From assembly GCF_000272005.1 (NCBI RefSeq), contig NZ_AKKU01000026.1, forward strand, positions 372,001-436,000: a stretch of DNA of 64,000 nt, read 5' to 3'. The notes beneath the pieces are model-generated. The model saw only the letters and a list, made by a program, of their open reading frames with translations, ran no database searches and had not been told where the DNA came from. Both the position numbers and the translations under genes were made by a program. Of the stretch, positions 16,578 to 25,428 are shown one piece after another (position 1 is the first letter of the stretch; every line of letters starts with the position of its first letter). Source of the stretch: Alishewanella agri BL06 (lineage in GTDB: Bacteria; Pseudomonadota; Gammaproteobacteria; Enterobacterales; Alteromonadaceae).

Positions 16578-18062
16578 ATGTTAAATTCCTTACGCCAAAC
16601 CTGGTTCTCTAATGTACGCGGCGATGTGCTATCCGCACTGGTGGTCGCGCTGGCCTTAATTCCTGAAGCGATCGCCTTTTCGATTATTGCTGGCGTTGAT
16701 CCTAAGGTCGGCCTGTATGCCTCTTTTTGTATCGCGGTGATTACCGCCTTTGCCGGTGGGCGGCCGGCGATGATTTCGGCGGCGACTGGCGCCATGGCGC
16801 TGCTGATGATTACGCTGGTGCGGGAACATGGCCTGGAATATTTATTAGCCGCAACTTTATTAACCGGGTTACTACAAATCCTGTTTGGTGTATTAAAGCT
16901 GGGCGAGCTGATGCGTTTTGTGTCACGCTCTGTGGTTACCGGCTTTGTGAATGCGCTGGCGATCCTGATTTTTATGGCGCAGTTACCTGAATTAACCGGG
17001 CAACACGGTACCTTGCTGGTGTATGGCATGACCGCGGCGGGCCTGGCCATTATCTATTTGTTTCCTTATGTCACCAAAACTATTCCATCCCCTCTGGTGT
17101 GTATAGTGGTGTTAACCGCTATCGCCGTTTATTTCCAGCTCGATCTGCGTACTGTCGCCGATATGGGTGAGCTGCCTGATAGCTTACCAGTCTTTTTATG
17201 GCCTGATGTGCCGCTGAATGTTGCAACGCTGCAAATCATCTTCCCTTATGCGTTGGCGCTAGCCGTGGTGGGCTTACTCGAGTCACTGATGACCGCCACC
17301 ATTGTTGATGATTTGACCGATACCAGCAGCGATAAGAATCGGGAATGTGTTGGGCAGGGGATTGCCAATATTGGCTCTGGTCTACTCGGCGGTATGGCAG
17401 GTTGTGCCATGATCGGGCAGTCGGTGATTAACGTGAAATCCGGTGGCCGCACCCGCCTCTCGACCCTACTGGCCGGTATTTTCTTGCTGCTGTTTATTGT
17501 CTTTTTAAGTGACTATGTCGGCATGATCCCGATGGCAGCGCTGGTGGCAGTGATGGTGATGGTGTCAATTGGTACCTTTAGCTGGAGTTCGGTACGGGAC
17601 TTACGTAAAAATCCGCTAAGTTCCAGTATCGTGATGGTCGCGACAGTCGTTGTCGTGGTCTTTACACACAATCTGGCCTATGGTGTACTGCTGGGAGTGT
17701 TACTCAGTGCCTTGTTTTTCGCCAATAAAGTGGGCCAGATCCTTTACATCAGTTCTAGCCTGCAAGCCGGTGGCCGCGAGCGGCGTTATCAGGTGGTAGG
17801 GCAGGTATTTTTTACCTCGGCTGAGCAATTTGTTACTGCCTTTGACTTTAAAGAGGCACTGGATAAGGTGCAGATCGATCTGAGCCGGGCACATTTTTGG
17901 GATATTACTGCGGTAAGCTCACTAGATAAGGTGGTACTAAAGTTTCGCCGTGAAGGTACCATGGTGGAGCTACTGGGGCTGAATGAAGCCAGCGCCACCC
18001 TGGTGGATAAATTTGCTGTGCATCAACAACCTGACGCAGTCGAAAAATTGATGGGACACTAA
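16578..18062 (+). CDS. SulP family anion transporter with STAS domain
   Basis: Inner-membrane anion carrier of the SLC26/SulP family, 494 residues from the ATG at 16578. About 12 to 14 membrane segments, with the family start [41 protein letters not shown] and the [17 protein letters not shown] and [19 protein letters not shown] (split in text here) segments. The last 90 residues are a STAS domain ([22 protein letters not shown]). Substrate may be sulfate, bicarbonate or another anion; sequence alone does not decide. It is followed after two bases by a universal stress protein gene. Confidence 0.92.
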
Positions 18063-18064
18063 CG

Positions 18065-18919
18065 ATGACAAAGCATGTCTACGCCTGTATTGATGCCTCA
18101 CCCTATGCTGAGGCGGTTTGTGATGGTGCGATCTGGGCCGCTAAGGCGCTGACGGCGCCCCTTGGTCTGGTGCATGTGATTGACCGGGCGCAGCATACCC
18201 AAACTCCGGATTTAAGTGGCAGTATTGGCTTGGGCTCGCAGGAAGTGTTACTGCAACAACTGGCAGAGCTGGATGAACAACACAGCAAGCTGGCATTGCA
18301 GCGTGGCCATCATATTCTGGATGCGGCACATGCCCGGGCGGCGGCCGCCGCAGTCGCTGAGATCAGCGAAGTGATGCGGCACGGTCCGTTACTGGAATCA
18401 TTAAAGGCACTGCAGGAGGAAACCCGGTTATTGGTATTGGGTAAGCGTGGCTTAAGCAGTACCGATGCGCATGGGCAACTGGGGATGCATATTGAGATGA
18501 TTATCCGCAGTATGCAAAAGCCTATTTTACTGACGCAGCAGCGTTTTCACGCGCCAAAGCGGGTGATGCTGGCCTATGATGGCAGTGCTACCGCGCAAAA
18601 GAGTCTGGAAATGCTGGCTGCCAGCCCGCTGTGTCGTGGCCTACCGGTGCATCTGGTGATGGCCGCAGTACGCAGTGAACAAGCCGAAAAACAGCTTGCT
18701 GAAGCCGCCAGTGTGCTAACGCTGGCCGGTTTTGATACCCGTACCGCGATAGTGGCCGGTGAGCCGGACGAGGCTTTGCATCAGTATCAGCAGGAACAGG
18801 TTATTGATCTGCTGGTGATGGGCGCCTACGGCCATTCGCGGATCCGGCAGTTTATTCTGGGTAGCACCACCACGGCGATGCTGAGTAAAGCCCGCTGCTC
18901 AATGTTAGTGTTACGGTAA
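18065..18919 (+). CDS. Tandem universal stress protein
   Basis: 284 residues with two UspA domains. The second domain has the clear family pattern RVMLAYDGSATAQKSLEMLAASPLC and the nucleotide-binding VMGAYGHSRIRQFILGSTTTAML (GxxGxS-type). The first domain begins YACIDASPYAEAVCDGAIWAA and ends in LLVLGKRGLSS. It begins two bases after the SulP stop, so the pair is co-translated; a Usp may regulate or respond to the transporter (inference). Confidence 0.93.
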   Translation: MTKHVYACIDASPYAEAVCDGAIWAAKALTAPLGLVHVIDRAQHTQTPDLSGSIGLGSQEVLLQQLAELDEQHSKLALQRGHHILDAAHARAAAAAVAEISEVMRHGPLLESLKALQEETRLLVLGKRGLSSTDAHGQLGMHIEMIIRSMQKPILLTQQRFHAPKRVMLAYDGSATAQKSLEMLAASPLCRGLPVHLVMAAVRSEQAEKQLAEAASVLTLAGFDTRTAIVAGEPDEALHQYQQEQVIDLLVMGAYGHSRIRQFILGSTTTAMLSKARCSMLVLR

Positions 18920-20438: not shown

Positions 20439-21194
20439 TTAGCTCGCGGCTTGCAGCGCACCGGCGCTTGCCAGTTCACTGAACAGCGGCAAGGCAAAGT
20501 CAGCCAGCTGCGCAGCTGTATAGGTCGGTAGATGCGTTGTCAGTTGCTGGCATAGTTGTGTCAACGTCTGACCAGGCTGTTCTGCCAGTTGATGCAAGAG
20601 CAGCAAACTGGCCTGATTAAGTTGCAGAAAAATCACTTCATCCTGGTAATCGCGATAGATAAAAAATGCCTGCGCATTGCTGGGCTCAGTCGGCTGAAAT
20701 GCCGGACTTATCTGCTCTACCGGATACTGATATACCGTCAGCAGGCTGGCTGCGGTAAGTTTCAGAGCCACACTTTGTAACTGACCGGCATTGATTGCTG
20801 GCGCCGGTTCGGCAGGAAGAGTGCCAACATAAAGTTCCGCCCACTCATAATGTGCCAGCTCGGCCAGAAAGGGCGGATCGGCGGCAGCGGGCTGATATTG
20901 CTGCAGAAAATCGACAAATTGCTGGGCAATATGCAAGAAATAGGGCGAGTGACAGCGATAATCGGCAAAAAAGCGTTGTTTCAGGCTTAACCAGGCATCG
21001 GGCTGATACAGGGTGCTGAGTACCGGGAAGGCATTATCGATAAAGCCGCTGACGTTATTAAAAAACAGCTGCTGATAGATTTGCAGGCGTGCTGTCGGCA
21101 CCGTCTGCTCCGCATAGGGCTCTTGGGGATGGCGAATGGCCCGGGCGAACGCCAGTTGGGTTTGCTGTAAGTTAGGGGTTGTAGGCTCAGTCAT
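20439..21194 (-). CDS. BufC/HvfC-like DUF2063 protein, RiPP maturation partner
   Basis: 251 residues of the DUF2063 (putative DNA-binding domain) family, recognised from LQQTQLAFARAIRHP at the N-terminus, RLQIYQQLFFNNVSGFIDNAFPVL (shown in part), and FFADYRCHSPYFLHIAQQFVDFL. In characterised systems this protein delivers the precursor peptide to the MNIO enzyme. Its start overlaps the stop of the DUF692 gene (ATGA), a strong sign of coupled translation. Last gene of the bufABC-like operon. Confidence 0.88.
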   Translation of the reverse strand: MTEPTTPNLQQTQLAFARAIRHPQEPYAEQTVPTARLQIYQQLFFNNVSGFIDNAFPVLSTLYQPDAWLSLKQRFFADYRCHSPYFLHIAQQFVDFLQQYQPAAADPPFLAELAHYEWAELYVGTLPAEPAPAINAGQLQSVALKLTAASLLTVYQYPVEQISPAFQPTEPSNAQAFFIYRDYQDEVIFLQLNQASLLLLHQLAEQPGQTLTQLCQQLTTHLPTYTAAQLADFALPLFSELASAGALQAAS

Positions 21195-22039
21195 ACTGCT
21201 GCTGGTCTCGGGCTGGCAACTTGCTGCAACTGCTTAATCTGCGACAGTTCCTGGCAAAGGTCGGCCAGCGGCGGGATATTAAAGTCCCGCTCGTATAAGG
21301 TTGGTTTCACACCATGCTGCTGATAGCTAAGACGCAACAATTGCCAGACCGGATCAGGAATGGCAGCGCCATGGGTATCAATCAGTAAGTCGGCCGCTTG
21401 CTGGTAATGTCCGGCGATATGGTAGTAGGCAATGCGCTCGCTTGGCATGGCTGCTAAAAAGGCACCGGCATCGTAGCCATGGTTGATGGAATTGACATAG
21501 ATATTATTGACGTCCAGCAGCAGCGGGCAGTCAGCTTCCGTAAGTACCGCCAACAGAAATTCCAGCTCGCTTAATTGCTGTGCCGGCGCGGCATAGTAGG
21601 AGACATTCTCGATAATCAATGGCCGCTCCAGGATCTGCTGCACCTGTTTAATCCGTGCCGCCACATAATGTACCGCTTCCTCAGTAAAGGGGATCGGCAT
21701 CAGGTCATACAGATGGCCGTCGGCAGCACAATAACTCAGATGTTCGCTATAGCGCAGGATCTGATGCTGGTCGAGAAAGTGTTTTAACTGCTGCAAGAAA
21801 TCCAGATCCAACGGATCCGGCCCACCAATATTTAACGACAGGCCATGACAAAAAAACGCATAGCGTTCGGTCAGTTGCCGGAAGTCTTTCGCCAGTTTAC
21901 CGCCATAAGGTAACCAGTTCTCCGGTGCAACCTCAAAGAAATCGATGATAGCCGGCTTATCTGCTAACAGTTCTGGCAGCAATTCGCGGCGCAGGCCAAG
22001 GCCTGCGCTGCTGTTACTAAAGTGAGCGAGTGGTTTCAT
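21191..22039 (-). CDS. BufB/HvfB-like MNIO enzyme (DUF692)
   Basis: 282-residue TIM-barrel multinuclear iron oxidase of the DUF692 family, which modifies cysteines in a precursor peptide. The metal-ligand motifs are visible in order: FFCHGLSLNIGG, SEHLSY, IIENVSYY, LLLDVNNIYVNS, YYHIAGH, DTHGAAIPDPVW and YERDFNIP. It starts six bases after the precursor gene stop and overlaps the DUF2063 gene by four bases. By analogy with bufferin and Hvf systems, the product should be an oxidised Cys heterocycle that binds copper; that chemistry is not visible in the sequence itself. Confidence 0.92.
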   Translation of the reverse strand: MKPLAHFSNSSAGLGLRRELLPELLADKPAIIDFFEVAPENWLPYGGKLAKDFRQLTERYAFFCHGLSLNIGGPDPLDLDFLQQLKHFLDQHQILRYSEHLSYCAADGHLYDLMPIPFTEEAVHYVAARIKQVQQILERPLIIENVSYYAAPAQQLSELEFLLAVLTEADCPLLLDVNNIYVNSINHGYDAGAFLAAMPSERIAYYHIAGHYQQAADLLIDTHGAAIPDPVWQLLRLSYQQHGVKPTLYERDFNIPPLADLCQELSQIKQLQQVASPRPAAV

Positions 22040-22045
22040 TTGGCG

Positions 22046-22522
22046 TTAGAGAGAGCCGCATTTACCTTCGCCACACTTCATTTCTTTGGCTTTATCACTG
22101 GCTTTTTTCTTGGCATCAGCGGCTTTTTCCTGACCGGCAGCTTTAGCTTCAGCAGCCTTGGCTTTGGCATCGGCTTTATGCATTTCGGCACCGCACTTGC
22201 CTTCACCGCATTTACCTTCGCCACATTTCATTTCTTTGGCTTTGTCGGCAGCCTGCTTTTTGGCATCCGCCATTTTTTGCTGCATTTCGGCGCCGCATTT
22301 GCCTTCGCCACACTTGCCTTCACCGCATTTCATTTCTTTGGCTTTATCGGTGGCTTGCTCTTTTACCTTAACCTTAACCCCGGTATTGTCCTGGGTGGTC
22401 ACTTGATAGGCCATACTCAGTTGCTGCGCCTGAAACGGGTTGCTATCCGCCAGGGCATTACCTGAGCCCAGTGCAAGGGCGCCCAGCGCCAGAGTTAATT
22501 GCGTTTTGGTTAATGTATTCAT
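22046..22522 (-). CDS. Bufferin/HvfA-like precursor peptide with EGKCG repeats
   Basis: 158 residues: a Sec signal ending near residue 25 (GNALA-DSN), then a Lys/Ala-rich core with three blocks starting KAKEMKCGEGKCG. In total there are five EGKCG and three EMKCG motifs, giving eight cysteines, all in CG context. EGKCG is the substrate motif for DUF692/MNIO enzymes. The Lys/Ala-rich spacers are probably helical. The ATG at 22522 sits eight bases after GAGG; a GTG three bases upstream is the alternative. The block repeats suggest growth by internal duplication. Followed directly by the MNIO and DUF2063 genes. Confidence 0.9.
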   Translation of the reverse strand: MNTLTKTQLTLALGALALGSGNALADSNPFQAQQLSMAYQVTTQDNTGVKVKVKEQATDKAKEMKCGEGKCGEGKCGAEMQQKMADAKKQAADKAKEMKCGEGKCGEGKCGAEMHKADAKAKAAEAKAAGQEKAADAKKKASDKAKEMKCGEGKCGSL

Positions 22523-22545: not shown

Positions 22546-22567
22546 TGGCCAGCATTTCCGCTGGCCA
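22546..22567 (-). promoter_or_regulatory. Hairpin in the 5' leader of the precursor gene
   Basis: Perfect 8-bp inverted repeat TGGCCAGC / GCTGGCCA with a six-base loop, ending about 24 bases before the precursor start codon. No T run follows on the minus strand, so it is more likely an mRNA-stabilising or control structure, or an end of the upstream transcript, than a strong terminator. Confidence 0.5.
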
Positions 22568-22636: not shown

Positions 22637-23362
22637 TTAATAACGGGTAATCAGTTCCAACCAACTCGCCGGCAAATTTTCAGTGGCGAGCACCAATAGG
22701 GTTTGATCAAGGTTCGTTAAGATTAACAACGCCACCAAAATTAAACTATAACCCAAAATCTGGCGGCCGCGCTCTCCTTTGGCAGCAAACTTGGGTAAAA
22801 AGCGATGTGCTGAGCCTGCCATCAGATAAGCAACGATAATCAGCGGCAGTGCCGCACCTAAGCCAAAGACAAACATCTGTAGCGTCGCGCTTACTATCGA
22901 TGTCGAGGTGTTAGTAAAACTTAATGCTGCACCTAACACGGGTCCGGCACAGGGGCTCCAGATGGCACCTAACAACAACCCCAACCACAAGGCGCCACCG
23001 GGCTTTTGTTCCAGGCGGCTTGCCAGGTTATCCGCTCTTGCCGCTAATGGCGCCAGTAGTGAAGAGGAGCCGCTTTTAAATGCCGGCACCACCAGCATCA
23101 CACCCAGCAATAAGATAATAATGGCAAAGACAGGTCTGCTTTGCGCAATGCTTATATCGAGTAATTGGAGTACGCCGTTAAGCATTGCCCCCATTAACGC
23201 AAAACCAATCGCTAAACCCAGTCCGGTTAATACTGGTGCATAACGGTGTTTAGCTAACCCTGACGCCGCCATTACAGGCAGCACCGGCAGAATACAAGGG
23301 GACAGTGTAATCAGCATGCCAGCCAAAAACAGCAAAGGTAAAACGGAGACGTCAGGTAACAT
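22637..23362 (-). CDS. CcdA/DsbD-like thiol electron transporter
   Basis: 241-residue inner-membrane protein with six predicted segments of the CcdA (DsbD transmembrane) family. The two redox cysteines are in the expected pseudo-symmetric positions: ITLSPCILPVLP in helix 1 and AIWSPCAGPVLG in helix 4. Such proteins pass electrons from cytoplasmic thioredoxin to periplasmic thiol proteins. The gene lies 11 bases after a secreted thioredoxin gene, its likely electron acceptor, and 111 bases before the EGKCG precursor gene, whose cysteines it might keep reduced (inference). Confidence 0.9.
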   Translation of the reverse strand: MLPDVSVLPLLFLAGMLITLSPCILPVLPVMAASGLAKHRYAPVLTGLGLAIGFALMGAMLNGVLQLLDISIAQSRPVFAIIILLLGVMLVVPAFKSGSSSLLAPLAARADNLASRLEQKPGGALWLGLLLGAIWSPCAGPVLGAALSFTNTSTSIVSATLQMFVFGLGAALPLIIVAYLMAGSAHRFLPKFAAKGERGRQILGYSLILVALLILTNLDQTLLVLATENLPASWLELITRY

Positions 23363-23373
23363 GGTGCCTCCGC

Positions 23374-23778
23374 TTACAGCGCTTTCATCAGTTCAGTTTT
23401 GATCGCATCAGCCTCGGTCAGCCCCCGGGTTCTTGATACTTCAACCCCGTCCCGATACACAATAATGGTGCTCTGGCCGGTTACACCGAAGCGTTTGTTC
23501 AATGCTTTTTCGGTAACCTGGTTATATTGCAGTACGGTAAGATTAGCGAACTCGGGCAGTTGCAGCGTGCTTTCGATGACTGGAATTTGTTTGCTACACA
23601 CCGGACAGCCTGGCTTGGTCGCAACCAGCACGAAACTGCCTTTTGCTTCAGCCAGCTGAAAACTGTCTGCGGAATAAGCGGGTAAACTCAGAGTGCCAGC
23701 GTATGCAGCAGGCAACTGAGCGAATGTCAGAGTGATGGCGGTGCTGATTAAAGCCGCGGTCAGTAACGAAGTCTTCAT
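23374..23778 (-). CDS. Secreted thioredoxin-fold protein with CPVC motif
   Basis: 134 residues. A signal peptide ends near residue 27 (AAYAG), followed by a thioredoxin fold with active site TKPGCPVCSKQIP. Later VLQYNQVTEKALNKRFGVTGQSTIIVYRDG holds the cis-Pro region, here with Gln-Ser-Thr in place of the usual Thr-Pro. Likely periplasmic disulfide reductase or copper-thiol protein. First gene of the thioredoxin-CcdA pair, with a matched SigF-type promoter about 60 bases upstream of its start. Confidence 0.88.
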   Translation of the reverse strand: MKTSLLTAALISTAITLTFAQLPAAYAGTLSLPAYSADSFQLAEAKGSFVLVATKPGCPVCSKQIPVIESTLQLPEFANLTVLQYNQVTEKALNKRFGVTGQSTIIVYRDGVEVSRTRGLTEADAIKTELMKAL

Positions 23779-23836: not shown

Positions 23837-23864
23837 TATTGCCTGACGCTAAGTAAAAGGTTAC
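23837..23864 (-). promoter_or_regulatory. SigF-type promoter for the thioredoxin-CcdA genes
   Basis: Minus strand GTAACCTTTT begins at 23864; CAATA (23841-23837) follows GTAACC after exactly 17 bases. An identical arrangement faces the other way at 23897-23924. The GTAAC-type -35 is what I recall for Caulobacter SigF (ECF16) promoters. Confidence 0.7.
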
Positions 23865-23896
23865 AAAAAAAAGCGAAAATTATTTTATGCGGGTCT

Positions 23897-23924
23897 GTAA
23901 CCTTTTGCTGTTTACCGGTCAATA
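23897..23924 (+). promoter_or_regulatory. SigF-type autoregulatory promoter for the sigma gene
   Basis: GTAACCTTTT starts at 23897 and CAATA lies at 23920-23924, again 17 bases after GTAACC. It ends 45 bases before the sigma-factor start codon. The match with the divergent box implies one sigma factor reads both. Confidence 0.7.
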
Positions 23925-23969: not shown

Positions 23970-24509
23970 ATGGATGAGTGGTCGACTTTGCTAGTTAGAG
24001 CACAACAAGGGGATAACGCAGCCTATGAGCGTTTTTTGCGCCAGGCAGTCCCCTTTATCAAGCGTCGTGGGCGACGTTATGTGAATAACGATCAACTTGA
24101 CGACCTGGTCCAGGAAAGCTTGTTAACGATTCATAAGGTATTACACAGCTATCAGCCGGGTTTGCCGGTTGAACCCTGGATTAGCGGCATTTTACGGCAT
24201 AAATTTTATGAAAACCGGCGCCAGCAGATCCGCCAGCAAGCAGAAACTTACCCGGAGGATGACTCCTGGCATCCAACAGTCGTGGCAGATCACGAGGATC
24301 AGGCTGAGGCATTGCAGCGATTATTATCACCGCTGACGGATCTGCAAGCAGAGGTACTGTACGCAACCAAGGTCGAGGAAATGTCAGTGGCGGAAACGGC
24401 AAATATGATGCAGCGCAGTGTGGCATGGGTAAAAGTCAATGTGCACCGTGCGTTAGTGTTGCTTCGCAACGAAATTGTAGCCGGCAACGTGGGGGGCGAG
24501 CGCAGATGA
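23970..24509 (+). CDS. ECF sigma factor, SigF (ECF16)-like
   Basis: 179 residues with region 2 (AYERFLRQAVPFIKRRG; DDLVQESLLTIHKVLHSYQP) and region 4 (LLSPLTDLQAEVLYATKVEEMSVAETANMM, then helix-turn-helix RSVAWVKVNVHRALVLL), and no region 3, the ECF layout. Pairing with an NrsF-type membrane anti-sigma gene, with ATGA overlap, places it with SigF of Caulobacter, which controls metal and oxidative stress genes. It probably activates itself and the divergent redox and peptide genes through the GTAACCTTTT boxes. Confidence 0.92.
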   Translation: MDEWSTLLVRAQQGDNAAYERFLRQAVPFIKRRGRRYVNNDQLDDLVQESLLTIHKVLHSYQPGLPVEPWISGILRHKFYENRRQQIRQQAETYPEDDSWHPTVVADHEDQAEALQRLLSPLTDLQAEVLYATKVEEMSVAETANMMQRSVAWVKVNVHRALVLLRNEIVAGNVGGERR

Positions 24510-25135
24510 AGGATAGAACAGAGCAATTAATTAGTCAGTTACTGGCGCAACATAGTGCAGTAGTACCGATGATCAGCAACAAGCTGATAGTGATAGGATT
24601 GGTACTGTCTCTTTTTGTGGCAATGGTACTGTTAGCGCCTTTGGGTTTGAGGGAGCAGTGGTCATTGTTAGCGCTGTTAAAAACGGTTGCGCTTTTTTCG
24701 TTCACTTTCGCGCTGTTTAGATGCACTCAATTAAACTGTCAACCAGCGGTGCAGCCTCTGCGACACTATCAAGGTGTTGTACTGAGCCTGTTATCCGGGG
24801 CGGTTGCTTTAGCGGCTATCGGTTGGCTGGCACCACCACTTTCGCTTGCTGCTGCCCTTGCCGAGTCATCATTTTGGGGCTGTGTGGCCTGGATTGGTAT
24901 TGTTGCGACGTTTTGCCTGCTGGGTTTGTTCCGTTTACTACGCCGGGCTAAACCACTTTATCGTTGGCGTTTGGTGCTGAGTTCTAGCGGTTTAGCGGGT
25001 TTTCTGGCCGCCACGGTTTACTCTTTACATTGTCCGGTGGATGCGCTGGCTTACCTCGGTACAGCCTATGTACTGGCTATGCTGCTGGTCGTTGCAGTTG
25101 GCTATGTCTTAAGCCGACGACTTTGGCATTGGTAG
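24506..25135 (+). CDS. NrsF-family membrane anti-sigma factor (DUF1109)
   Basis: 209 residues with six predicted membrane helices; a short cytoplasmic N-terminus (MKDRTEQLISQLLAQHSAVVPM) presumably holds the sigma factor. The periplasmic-side SLHCPVDALAYLGTAY segment carries the HCP signature of NrsF proteins. A further Cys pair near RCTQLNC in the second loop may be involved in sensing. Starts within the sigma stop codon (ATGA overlap). The signal sensed is unknown here; copper or another thiol-reactive metal is the best guess from context. Confidence 0.88.
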   Translation: MKDRTEQLISQLLAQHSAVVPMISNKLIVIGLVLSLFVAMVLLAPLGLREQWSLLALLKTVALFSFTFALFRCTQLNCQPAVQPLRHYQGVVLSLLSGAVALAAIGWLAPPLSLAAALAESSFWGCVAWIGIVATFCLLGLFRLLRRAKPLYRWRLVLSSSGLAGFLAATVYSLHCPVDALAYLGTAYVLAMLLVVAVGYVLSRRLWHW

Positions 25136-25152
25136 TACATTAATGCATATGT

Positions 25153-25428
25153 TTAATGCACCCGGTAATAACGACAGAAGTAATCCACAATGGCTGAGGC
25201 ATCCAGGCGCTGAAATTTCAGCTGATGCCGCTCCATCAGGGCTTTACCAAGGGTGCGCAGCGTATGATCCAGCGGTGCACCTGCTGGTCGTTCCAACTGA
25301 TGTTCTTTAAATAAGAAATCCAGCGCTACCGAAGTATAGGATTTGCCCGGCTGCGGTCTGGCCAGCTCCAGCTCCTGCAGGCGTACCCCCAGGTTACGGA
25401 TTTTTTGCAGGCAATCACGCTCGTTCAT
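25153..25428 (-). CDS. Small hypothetical protein
   Basis: 91 residues, not recognised. It has a charged, helical look: an N-terminal MNERDCLQKIRNLGVRLQELE helix, then DHTLRTLGKALMERHQLKFQRLDA and a Cys/Tyr-rich end DYFCRYYRVH. No signal peptide or membrane segment. It converges on the NrsF gene with 17 bases between stops and is divergent from the Lon-like gene, with 134 bases of shared upstream region. Confidence 0.6.
   Translation of the reverse strand: MNERDCLQKIRNLGVRLQELELARPQPGKSYTSVALDFLFKEHQLERPAGAPLDHTLRTLGKALMERHQLKFQRLDASAIVDYFCRYYRVH

What the first reader, a model, noticed from the sequence alone, without database searches (positions are those of the whole stretch)
20439..22522. 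Copper-type RiPP operon (bufferin/Hvf-like) with an eight-cysteine repeat precursor
A signal-peptide precursor with five EGKCG and three EMKCG motifs lies directly upstream of DUF692 (MNIO) and DUF2063 genes, coupled by close spacing and an ATGA overlap. Known bufferin and Hvf systems use these three proteins to make a Cys-modified, copper-binding peptide. This precursor is larger than simple two-motif examples and shows three Lys/Ala-spaced blocks, so it may bind several metal ions per peptide. EMKCG as a possible second substrate motif has, to my knowledge, little study.
Basis: partly seen in the sequence, partly recalled or inferred. Interest (0 to 1): 0.78.

Follow-up and report, generated by a model that had tools for sequence, protein, structure and literature searches.

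The report
Copper-peptide operon with redox and sigma genes
This is an Alishewanella version of a known bacterial copper-binding-peptide operon (HvfABC); what is less ordinary is that here it is joined to a thiol-reducing gene pair and a stress sigma factor that probably switch it on and keep the peptide able to hold copper.

Summary
On the minus strand lie a signal-peptide precursor with eight Cys (3 EMKCG, 5 EGKCG), then an MNIO (DUF692) and a DUF2063 gene with an ATGA overlap. NCBIfam names them HvfA-type, HvfB and HvfC. It is therefore an oxazolin-type operon, not a DUF2282 bufferin. Eight Cys is ordinary: precursors in the same genus have 6 to 11. EMKCG is a real, lineage-specific feature: it occurs in 14 of 30 genus precursors and always opens a tandem block (44 of 44). 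Published variants of a homologue suggest it would still be modified.

Upstream in the same direction are a thioredoxin (CPVC) and a CcdA/DsbD-like membrane gene. Divergent from them are an ECF sigma factor and an NrsF protein. Both promoters carry TGTAACC-N17-CAAT, close to Caulobacter sigma-F (GTAACC-N16-CGAA), which drives bufferin operons and responds to copper. In this genus 7 of 10 short CcdA genes lie within 5 kb of an MNIO gene.

Best model: a sigma-F/NrsF-controlled periplasmic copper-sequestration operon whose thioredoxin/CcdA relay keeps the peptide's thiols reduced. The core is known; the redox coupling is a new variant, inferred from genome context only. Nothing here shows modification or copper binding.

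The parts
22046..22522 (-). hvfA: RiPP precursor, 158 aa, signal peptide (by eye), leader NPF...L..AYQ, three motif blocks (3x EMKCG, 5x EGKCG)
   Evidence: NF050137 53.7 bits over cut-off 19.5; NF050188 HvfA equivalog 58.8 bits, below its cut-off 95
21191..22039 (-). hvfB: MNIO (DUF692) maturase, 282 aa
   Evidence: NF003818 435.8 bits over cut-off 360; PF05114 351.6 bits; nearest solved structure 3bww_A, E 1.3e-70
20439..21194 (-). hvfC: DUF2063 / RRE partner protein (PME type 1), 251 aa, ATGA overlap with hvfB
   Evidence: NF050145 249.2 bits over cut-off 142; PF09836 and PF22106 over cut-off; 3dee_A, E 9.1e-12
22637..23362 (-). ccdA-like: CcdA/DsbD-type membrane thiol-electron carrier, 241 aa, two SPC motifs
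   Evidence: PF02683 DsbD_TM 55.9 bits over 27.1; both cysteines invariant in 12 aligned homologues
23374..23778 (-). trx-like: thioredoxin with signal peptide (by eye), 134 aa, CPVC active site
   Evidence: PF00085 25.8 bits over 23.5; both Cys of CxxC invariant in 10 aligned homologues
23838..23865 (-). sigma-F-type promoter for trx-ccdA(-hvfABC): TGTAACC-N17-CAAT
   Evidence: 2 matches in the window against 0.09 expected, 0 of 100 shuffles with two (pattern TGTAACC-N17-SAAT); same motif in the same place in G008 and G010
23896..23923 (+). sigma-F-type promoter for the sigma/nrsF pair: TGTAACC-N17-CAAT
   Evidence: also in G008, no exact match on this side in G010
23970..24509 (+). ECF sigma factor, 179 aa
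   Evidence: Sigma70_r2 and Sigma70_r4_2 over cut-off; TIGR02937 over cut-off
24506..25135 (+). nrsF: NrsF-domain membrane anti-sigma factor (start re-set to 24506, ATGA overlap with sigma), 209 aa, two cysteines in the positions of Caulobacter C131/C181 by eye
   Evidence: PF06532 46.8 bits over 26.8; below the NCBIfam NrsF equivalog cut-off (22.6 against 300); translation; alignment

Best explanation
A periplasmic copper-sequestration operon of the HvfABC (oxazolin) kind, placed under a sigma-F/NrsF-type switch and joined to a thiol-reducing pair. Steps: (1) thiol-active metal or another envelope stress disturbs the cysteines of NrsF and frees the ECF sigma factor [inferred from Caulobacter]; (2) the sigma factor transcribes itself and, divergently, trx-ccdA-hvfABC from TGTAACC-N17-CAAT promoters [motif shown; binding and co-transcription inferred]; (3) HvfC holds the HvfA leader and HvfB turns the Cys of the EMKCG/EGKCG motifs into 5-thiooxazoles, about 4 Da lost per Cys [by homology to HvfBC/FonBC]; (4) the peptide is exported by Sec and binds several Cu(I) [by homology]; (5) CcdA passes cytoplasmic electrons to the exported thioredoxin, which keeps thiooxazole thiols or unmodified Cys of HvfA from being locked in disulfides, so that they can bind Cu(I) [inferred, the least secure step]. 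EMKCG is a clade-specific block-opening motif that is most likely modified like EGKCG.
For: Family calls over cut-off for HvfB, HvfC and the KCGExKCG domain; NrsF, ECF sigma, DsbD_TM and thioredoxin over Pfam cut-offs. Gene order nrsF-sigma / trx-ccdA-hvfABC kept in three species; the other two sigma factors are 57 and 58% identical to the window's. Promoter motif; among 7 genome-wide hits of TGTAACC-N17-CAAT in G000 (reversed control 0) only the two sites here read TGTAACCTTT. Caulobacter sigma-F uses GTAACC-N16-CGAA and controls DUF2282/DUF692/DUF2063/DoxX operons with NrsF (PMC3511200, passages); its regulon is copper-induced and a sigF mutant is copper-sensitive (PMC8224329, passages). In the class sample an EGKCG-type hvf operon lies divergent from sigma/NrsF with a like motif in two genomes (L187, L188). 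Short CcdA genes near an MNIO: 7 of 10 in 31 genus genomes, start coordinates 1.4-2.1 kb from that of the MNIO. Thiooxazole peptides form disulfides and the reduced form binds Cu(I) (PMC12538549, passages); disulfide-bonded HvfA is not a substrate of HvfBC (PMC13419390, passages).
Against: No expression, modification or copper data. Co-transcription across the 114-bp ccdA-hvfA gap is assumed. Close relatives keep hvfABC without the trx/ccdA/sigma/nrsF genes at the locus (G001, G007, G029), so these genes are not required for the peptide. trx-ccdA stands divergent from the sigma gene of a sigma/NrsF locus without any MNIO in two class genomes (L190, L192). Outside the genus none of 4 short CcdA hits lay on the contig of the over-cut-off HvfB, in 80 of the 103 HvfB-positive order genomes (some of these genomes have further MNIO matches that one search did not list). 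The HvfA equivalog cut-off is not met (58.8 against 95), nor the NrsF one (22.6 against 300).
Confidence: 0.7

Rival explanations
1. The trx-ccdA pair does not serve the peptide. It is a general periplasmic thiol-repair module of the sigma/NrsF regulon that happens to share the divergent promoter with hvfABC.
For: trx-ccdA or peroxiredoxin-DsbD-like genes accompany sigma/NrsF without an MNIO in other genomes (L190, L192, L173-L176). Three genus genomes have a type-B trx-ccdA away from any MNIO (G000:C25, G024:C9, G029:C15).
Against: A non-orthologous trx-ccdA (type B, CcdA 35-36% identical to the window's) lies beside hvfABC in G005, G017 and G020, which lack the cognate sigma, and another beside a DUF2282-MNIO operon in G008, away from its sigma/NrsF locus.
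Confidence: 0.35
2. The trx-ccdA pair acts on NrsF: it re-reduces the sensor cysteines and so shuts the response off (feedback), rather than acting on HvfA.
For: NrsF cysteines matter for sigma release in Caulobacter (PMC3511200, passages); one is invariant in the 15 NrsF aligned here.
Against: In Caulobacter single Cys mutants still respond, which argued against an intramolecular disulfide. Type-B pairs occur beside hvf operons in genomes without the cognate sigma (G005, G017, G020); NrsF was sought in those stretches only by phmmer, a weak test that found none.
Confidence: 0.15
3. EMKCG Cys are not modified; they stay as thiols, with Met as a soft ligand, and form mixed Met/Cys copper sites next to thiooxazoles.
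For: EMKCG always opens a block (44 of 44) and the window's three copies differ synonymously, so it seems to be kept at the protein level.
Against: Of the non-Pro variants tested at positions 1 and 2 with FonBC only 1-Arg failed; its minimal substrate itself opens with EAKCG, as its variant names imply (PMC13097082, section 12; Met not mentioned there).
Confidence: 0.15

Closest known systems
HvfABC / oxazolin of nontypeable Haemophilus influenzae (PMC13419390, passages read)
   Same: Precursor with signal peptide and repeated EGKCG, MNIO HvfB, RRE/DUF2063 partner HvfC; NCBIfam HvfB and HvfC cut-offs passed.
   Different: No HvfX (DoxX) at the locus: the one DoxX match in the genome is at G000:C26:114329, about 279 kb away. 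EMKCG openers and long K/A-rich spacers; eight instead of six Cys; trx-ccdA and sigma/NrsF added; HvfA equivalog cut-off not met.
FonABC / fontiphorin and the 'captophorin' class (PMC13097082, sections 7, 12, 13 read)
   Same: EGKCG repeats, MNIO plus PME1; seven sites of modification in FonA.
   Different: No EMKCG in the paper's main text.
MmrABC / bulbicupramide of Microbulbifer (PMC12538549, passages read)
   Same: Five to eight Cys in EGKCG units, MNIO/DUF2063 pair, Cu(I) binding in the reduced form.
   Different: No sigma factor or thioredoxin is mentioned in the main text.
Caulobacter sigma-F/NrsF bufferin regulon (PMC3511200, PMC8224329, passages read)
   Same: ECF sigma plus NrsF, GTAACC-type -35, controls MNIO/DUF2063 operons.
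   Different: There the precursor is DUF2282 and the membrane protein DoxX; here the precursor is EGKCG/EMKCG and the redox partner is Trx plus CcdA; -10 is CAAT after 17 bases, not CGAA after 16.
EGKCG-type hvf operon divergent from sigma/NrsF in two class genomes, L187/G629 and L188/G506
   Same: KCG-repeat HvfA, HvfB, HvfC; divergent sigma/NrsF; motif TGTAACC-N16-CGAAT.
   Different: DoxX (shown by Pfam in L188) and no Trx-CcdA; only three (L187) or four (L188) KCG in the precursor beside sigma.

Membership tests
HvfA-type (oxazolin / Buf_EGKCG) RiPP | Repeated KCGExKCG in a signal-peptide precursor | tested here: met
   NF050137 53.7 bits over 19.5; signal peptide by eye only
HvfA-type (oxazolin / Buf_EGKCG) RiPP | NCBIfam HvfA equivalog NF050188 over its cut-off | tested here: not met
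   58.8 bits against 95, so it is filed as HvfA-family, not as the HvfA equivalog
HvfA-type (oxazolin / Buf_EGKCG) RiPP | Adjacent MNIO of HvfB family and DUF2063 partner of HvfC family | tested here: met
   435.8 over 360 and 249.2 over 142
HvfA-type (oxazolin / Buf_EGKCG) RiPP | DoxX protein (HvfX) in the operon | tested here: not met
   no DoxX within 5 kb of hvfB in G000; DoxX is near hvfB in only 6 of 30 genus genomes, so it is not a strict requirement
HvfA-type (oxazolin / Buf_EGKCG) RiPP | Cys turned into 5-thiooxazole | not testable with these tools
   needs mass spectrometry
HvfA-type (oxazolin / Buf_EGKCG) RiPP | Cu(I) binding / copper tolerance | not testable with these tools
   needs titration and a deletion strain
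Bufferin 1 (DUF2282) | DUF2282 precursor | tested here: not met
   no DUF2282 hit up to E 0.01
Bufferin 1 (DUF2282) | BufB maturase over its NCBIfam cut-off | tested here: not met
   269.2 against 310
Sigma-F/NrsF regulon | ECF sigma beside an NrsF-domain protein | tested here: met
   PF06532 46.8 over 26.8; NCBIfam NrsF equivalog not met, 22.6 against 300
Sigma-F/NrsF regulon | GTAACC-type promoter before the regulated operon | tested here: met
   -10 and spacer differ from Caulobacter
Sigma-F/NrsF regulon | Two periplasmic NrsF cysteines | tested here: inconclusive
   FWGC and SLHC are present in the window at the Caulobacter spacing by eye; no Caulobacter sequence was aligned and topology was not predicted; the second Cys is absent in several other NrsF aligned
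Sigma-F/NrsF regulon | Induction by copper or other metals | not testable with these tools
   needs transcript data
CcdA/DsbD thiol relay | DsbD_TM protein with two conserved Cys plus exported CxxC thioredoxin | tested here: met
   invariant Cys; export judged by eye

The most novel reading that the evidence does not exclude
A RiPP metallophore with its own dedicated redox charger: an exported thioredoxin fed by a CcdA-type membrane carrier re-reduces the thiooxazole thiols of HvfA in the periplasm, so that the peptide can be recycled between an oxidised, copper-free state and a reduced, Cu(I)-holding state. Trx-CcdA would then fill the place that DoxX has in other hvf operons, and both peptide and charger answer to one sigma-F/NrsF switch.
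Probability: 0.3. Interest if true: 0.62.

Novelty: new variant of a known kind. Interest (0 to 1): 0.4.

Why it matters
How exported thiooxazole peptides are kept in the copper-binding, reduced state in the oxidising periplasm is, as far as the passages I read go, open, and the role of the usual DoxX partner is unknown (PMC13419390 calls HvfX uncharacterised; PMC13097082 says DoxX may matter for copper binding). A locus in which a defined thiol-electron relay sits where DoxX is missing makes that question directly testable by gene removal. It also shows the sigma-F/NrsF switch, described in the papers read for DUF2282 bufferins, on EGKCG-type operons.

Tried and rejected
Bufferin proper: rejected on the DUF2282 and BufB tests. 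'Unusually large precursor': rejected; 30 genus precursors have 6 to 11 Cys and published ones up to 58. 'EMKCG as a second chemistry': lowered, see rivals. A general first-against-later asymmetry in motif position 2 (53 of 358 openers against 14 of 398 later motifs not Gly): without the 44 EMKCG it is 9 of 314 against 14 of 398, so it is only the EMKCG clade and no general rule. 'NrsF with EGKCG is unique to Alishewanella': rejected by L187 and L188. 'Trx-CcdA goes with hvf everywhere': rejected.

The promoter palindrome search used a wrongly counted spacer and says nothing. Figures and supplements of the papers were not seen; in particular I could not see how often sigma/NrsF occurs in EGKCG clusters in Fig. 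3f of PMC12452194. The structure of HvfA was not obtained: the job was interrupted and the tool was then off, so the published beta-helix idea for 17-residue repeats was not tested on this spacer type. Rows left out of counts: 16 of the 80 loci gave no precursor by the KCG test and are not in the motif counts; 23 of 103 HvfB-positive genomes were not searched; the match lists were cut by the tool; of the NrsF matches under cut-off (6 of 21, 2 of 7) only G110 (L176) was read. Some loci are the same genomes as G handles (L005 with G007, L006 with G008, L009 with G017), so they are not independent; duplicates were removed before the motif counts.
Full report
WHAT IS THERE. The window lies in a GTDB genus whose named relatives are Alishewanella, Arsukibacterium and Rheinheimera; its HvfB is 100% identical (rounded; one residue differs) to that of Alishewanella jeotgali KCTC 22429 (L005), but the surroundings differ (below), so it is another Alishewanella. 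The genome gave one MNIO match.

WHAT FAMILY. NCBIfam places the MNIO in the HvfB family (435.8 bits, cut-off 360) and below the bufferin maturase cut-off (269.2 against 310); the partner is HvfC (249.2 against 142); the precursor passes the KCGExKCG domain model (53.7 against 19.5) but not the narrower HvfA equivalog (58.8 against 95). Pfam gives no DUF2282. Nearest solved structures are 3bww (HvfB, E 1.3e-70) and 3dee (HvfC, E 9.1e-12); both are named as members of such clusters in PMC13097082, section 7. So it is an oxazolin-type system. Its chemistry by homology is conversion of Cys to 5-thiooxazole (PMC13419390, passages; PMC13097082, section 12). None of this was tested here.

THE PRECURSOR. 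Eight Cys is ordinary: the 30 genus precursors have 6 to 11. EMKCG is not: among 85 distinct precursors (30 of 30 genus loci and 64 of 80 loci gave one; duplicates by the last 90 residues removed) it occurs 44 times in 14, all from the window's genus, 14 of its 30. In 44 of 44 cases it opens a tandem block and is followed by EGKCG (43) or EGMCG (1). The three window copies differ at synonymous positions, so the motif seems to be kept at the protein level and not just by recent copying. The literature search for EMKCG gave one unrelated paper. With FonBC, a homologue, only Arg at position 1 failed among the non-Pro variants tested at positions 1 and 2 (Met is not mentioned), the minimal substrate opens with EAKCG as its variant names imply, and changing the Glu of its second motif impaired turnover (PMC13097082, section 12). 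I therefore expect EMKCG to be modified.

Directly upstream in the same direction are a CcdA/DsbD-type membrane gene (23362..22637) and a thioredoxin with a CPVC site and, by eye, a signal peptide (23778..23374); divergent from these are an ECF sigma factor (23970..24509) and an NrsF protein (24506..25135, start re-set, ATGA overlap). The CxxC of the thioredoxin and two cysteines of CcdA are invariant in 10 and 12 homologues. NrsF has two cysteines that by eye match Caulobacter C131 and C181.

THE PROMOTERS. Between the divergent genes lie two copies of TGTAACC-N17-CAAT, one towards each side: 2 in the window against 0.09 expected, 0 of 100 shuffles with two (the pattern was chosen after seeing the site). 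G008 (same sequence as A. longhuensis, L006, over the stretch compared) has both, G010 has the one towards trx. In 5 genomes TGTAACC-N17-CAAT has 24 hits in all (reversed control 4); only 5, all in the three sigma/NrsF loci, read TGTAACCTTT. Caulobacter sigma-F uses GTAACC-N16-CGAA (PMC3511200). In the class sample TGTAACC-N16-CGAAT occurs in L179, L180, L185, L187 and L188, and with CGAAC in L181 and L182, near the sigma/NrsF genes; L187 and L188 have KCG-repeat precursors. A few other hits of that scan (L174, L176, L184) lie away from the sigma promoter or inside the sigma gene and look like chance.

HOW SPREAD. In 31 genus genomes HvfB is in 30; the cognate sigma (over 50% identity) is in 3. 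A tree of the flanking LonB-like ATPase puts two of the three module carriers next to non-carriers (G008 with G029, support 84/89; G000 with G001 and G007, 100/100), so the module was probably present in the common ancestor and lost at least twice, or moved. NrsF over cut-off is rare: 5 of 394 order genomes and 15 of 369 class genomes. I read the loci of the latter 15, some on short contigs: 7 have an MNIO beside it (own, L181-L184, L187, L188), of which 3 have KCG-repeat precursors (own, L187, L188) and 4 DUF2282-like ones by eye; two have trx-ccdA divergent from sigma and no MNIO (L190, L192); the other six have neither next to sigma. In four order genomes sigma/NrsF goes with a peroxiredoxin and a DsbD-like gene and no MNIO was seen (L173-L176; Pfam for L176; G110/L176 is under the NrsF cut-off). 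The same switch thus goes with thiol-redox genes in some lineages and MNIO operons in others; here both are joined.

IS TRX-CCDA REALLY LINKED TO THE PEPTIDE? In the 31 genus genomes there are 10 short CcdA hits (E 1.5e-30 or better; the next is 2.2e-10). Seven lie within 5 kb of an MNIO gene: three in the module, three of a second type (35-36% identical) next to hvfC in G005, G017 and G020, and one beside a DUF2282-MNIO operon in G008. A naive chance of 0.28% per gene gives about 3e-6 for even three of ten; the seven are not independent, but they stand in at least three arrangements. Against this, outside the genus none of 4 short CcdA hits was on the contig of the over-cut-off HvfB (80 of 103 HvfB-positive genomes searched), and in the 80 loci a CcdA profile found only L006 and L009, which are the same genomes as G008 and G017. 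DoxX, the usual partner, is near hvfB in 6 of 30 genus genomes (and near two second MNIO genes); only G017 has both near hvfB, and the three module carriers have no DoxX near hvfB. The held main text of the four main papers on these systems does not contain the words thioredoxin or CcdA.

MECHANISM. Most likely a metal- or thiol-stress switch (sigma/NrsF) turns on a copper-binding thiooxazole peptide together with a relay that keeps periplasmic thiols reduced. The peptide of Microbulbifer forms a disulfide and binds Cu(I) in its reduced form (PMC12538549, passages), which gives such a relay a purpose. Shown here: genes, order, conservation, motifs. Inferred: co-transcription, induction, chemistry, copper, and the relay's target.

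VERDICT. The finding is real; its core is a known kind of system. The attached switch and redox pair make it a new variant. Interest is moderate.

Noticed in passing
window 20901-22400: From inside hvfA to the middle of hvfC the DNA is 92-100% identical per 100 bases to G007 and G001, which lack the sigma/trx/ccdA genes at the locus, while the stretches on both sides fall to 38-85%: an apparent exchange between species that put the same precursor and maturase under two kinds of control.
   Followed up: partly
window 17888-18904: The stretch with the universal-stress-protein gene is 94.6% identical to A. jeotgali while nearby stretches are 80-83%: perhaps another exchanged patch.
   Followed up: no
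L199 (G008:C1:504000-517000): A DUF2282-MNIO bufferin-type operon sits between a type-B trx-ccdA pair and a 306-aa gene that is the pair's direct neighbour in G000:C25 and G029:C15, where no MNIO was found.
   Followed up: partly
L173-L176: Sigma/NrsF with a peroxiredoxin and a DsbD-like gene and no MNIO seen: the NrsF switch may answer to thiol stress more widely than copper.
   Followed up: partly
window 25153-25428: A 91-aa gene without any Pfam match at E 1e-4 is kept between the LonB-like ATPase and the hvf locus in the Alishewanella and Arsukibacterium loci read.
   Followed up: no
window 22546-22567: Hairpin TGGCCAGC-GGAAAT-GCTGGCCA just before hvfA on the minus strand, without a T run; it could set hvfA message level within the operon.
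   Followed up: no
L008, L009, L195: In Arsukibacterium-type loci hvfABC is followed by DoxX (L008, L009) and by a different ECF-like sigma gene with a downstream partner gene (sigma by phmmer in L195, by eye in the others): hvf operons in this genus seem to lie near more than one kind of sigma factor.
   Followed up: partly
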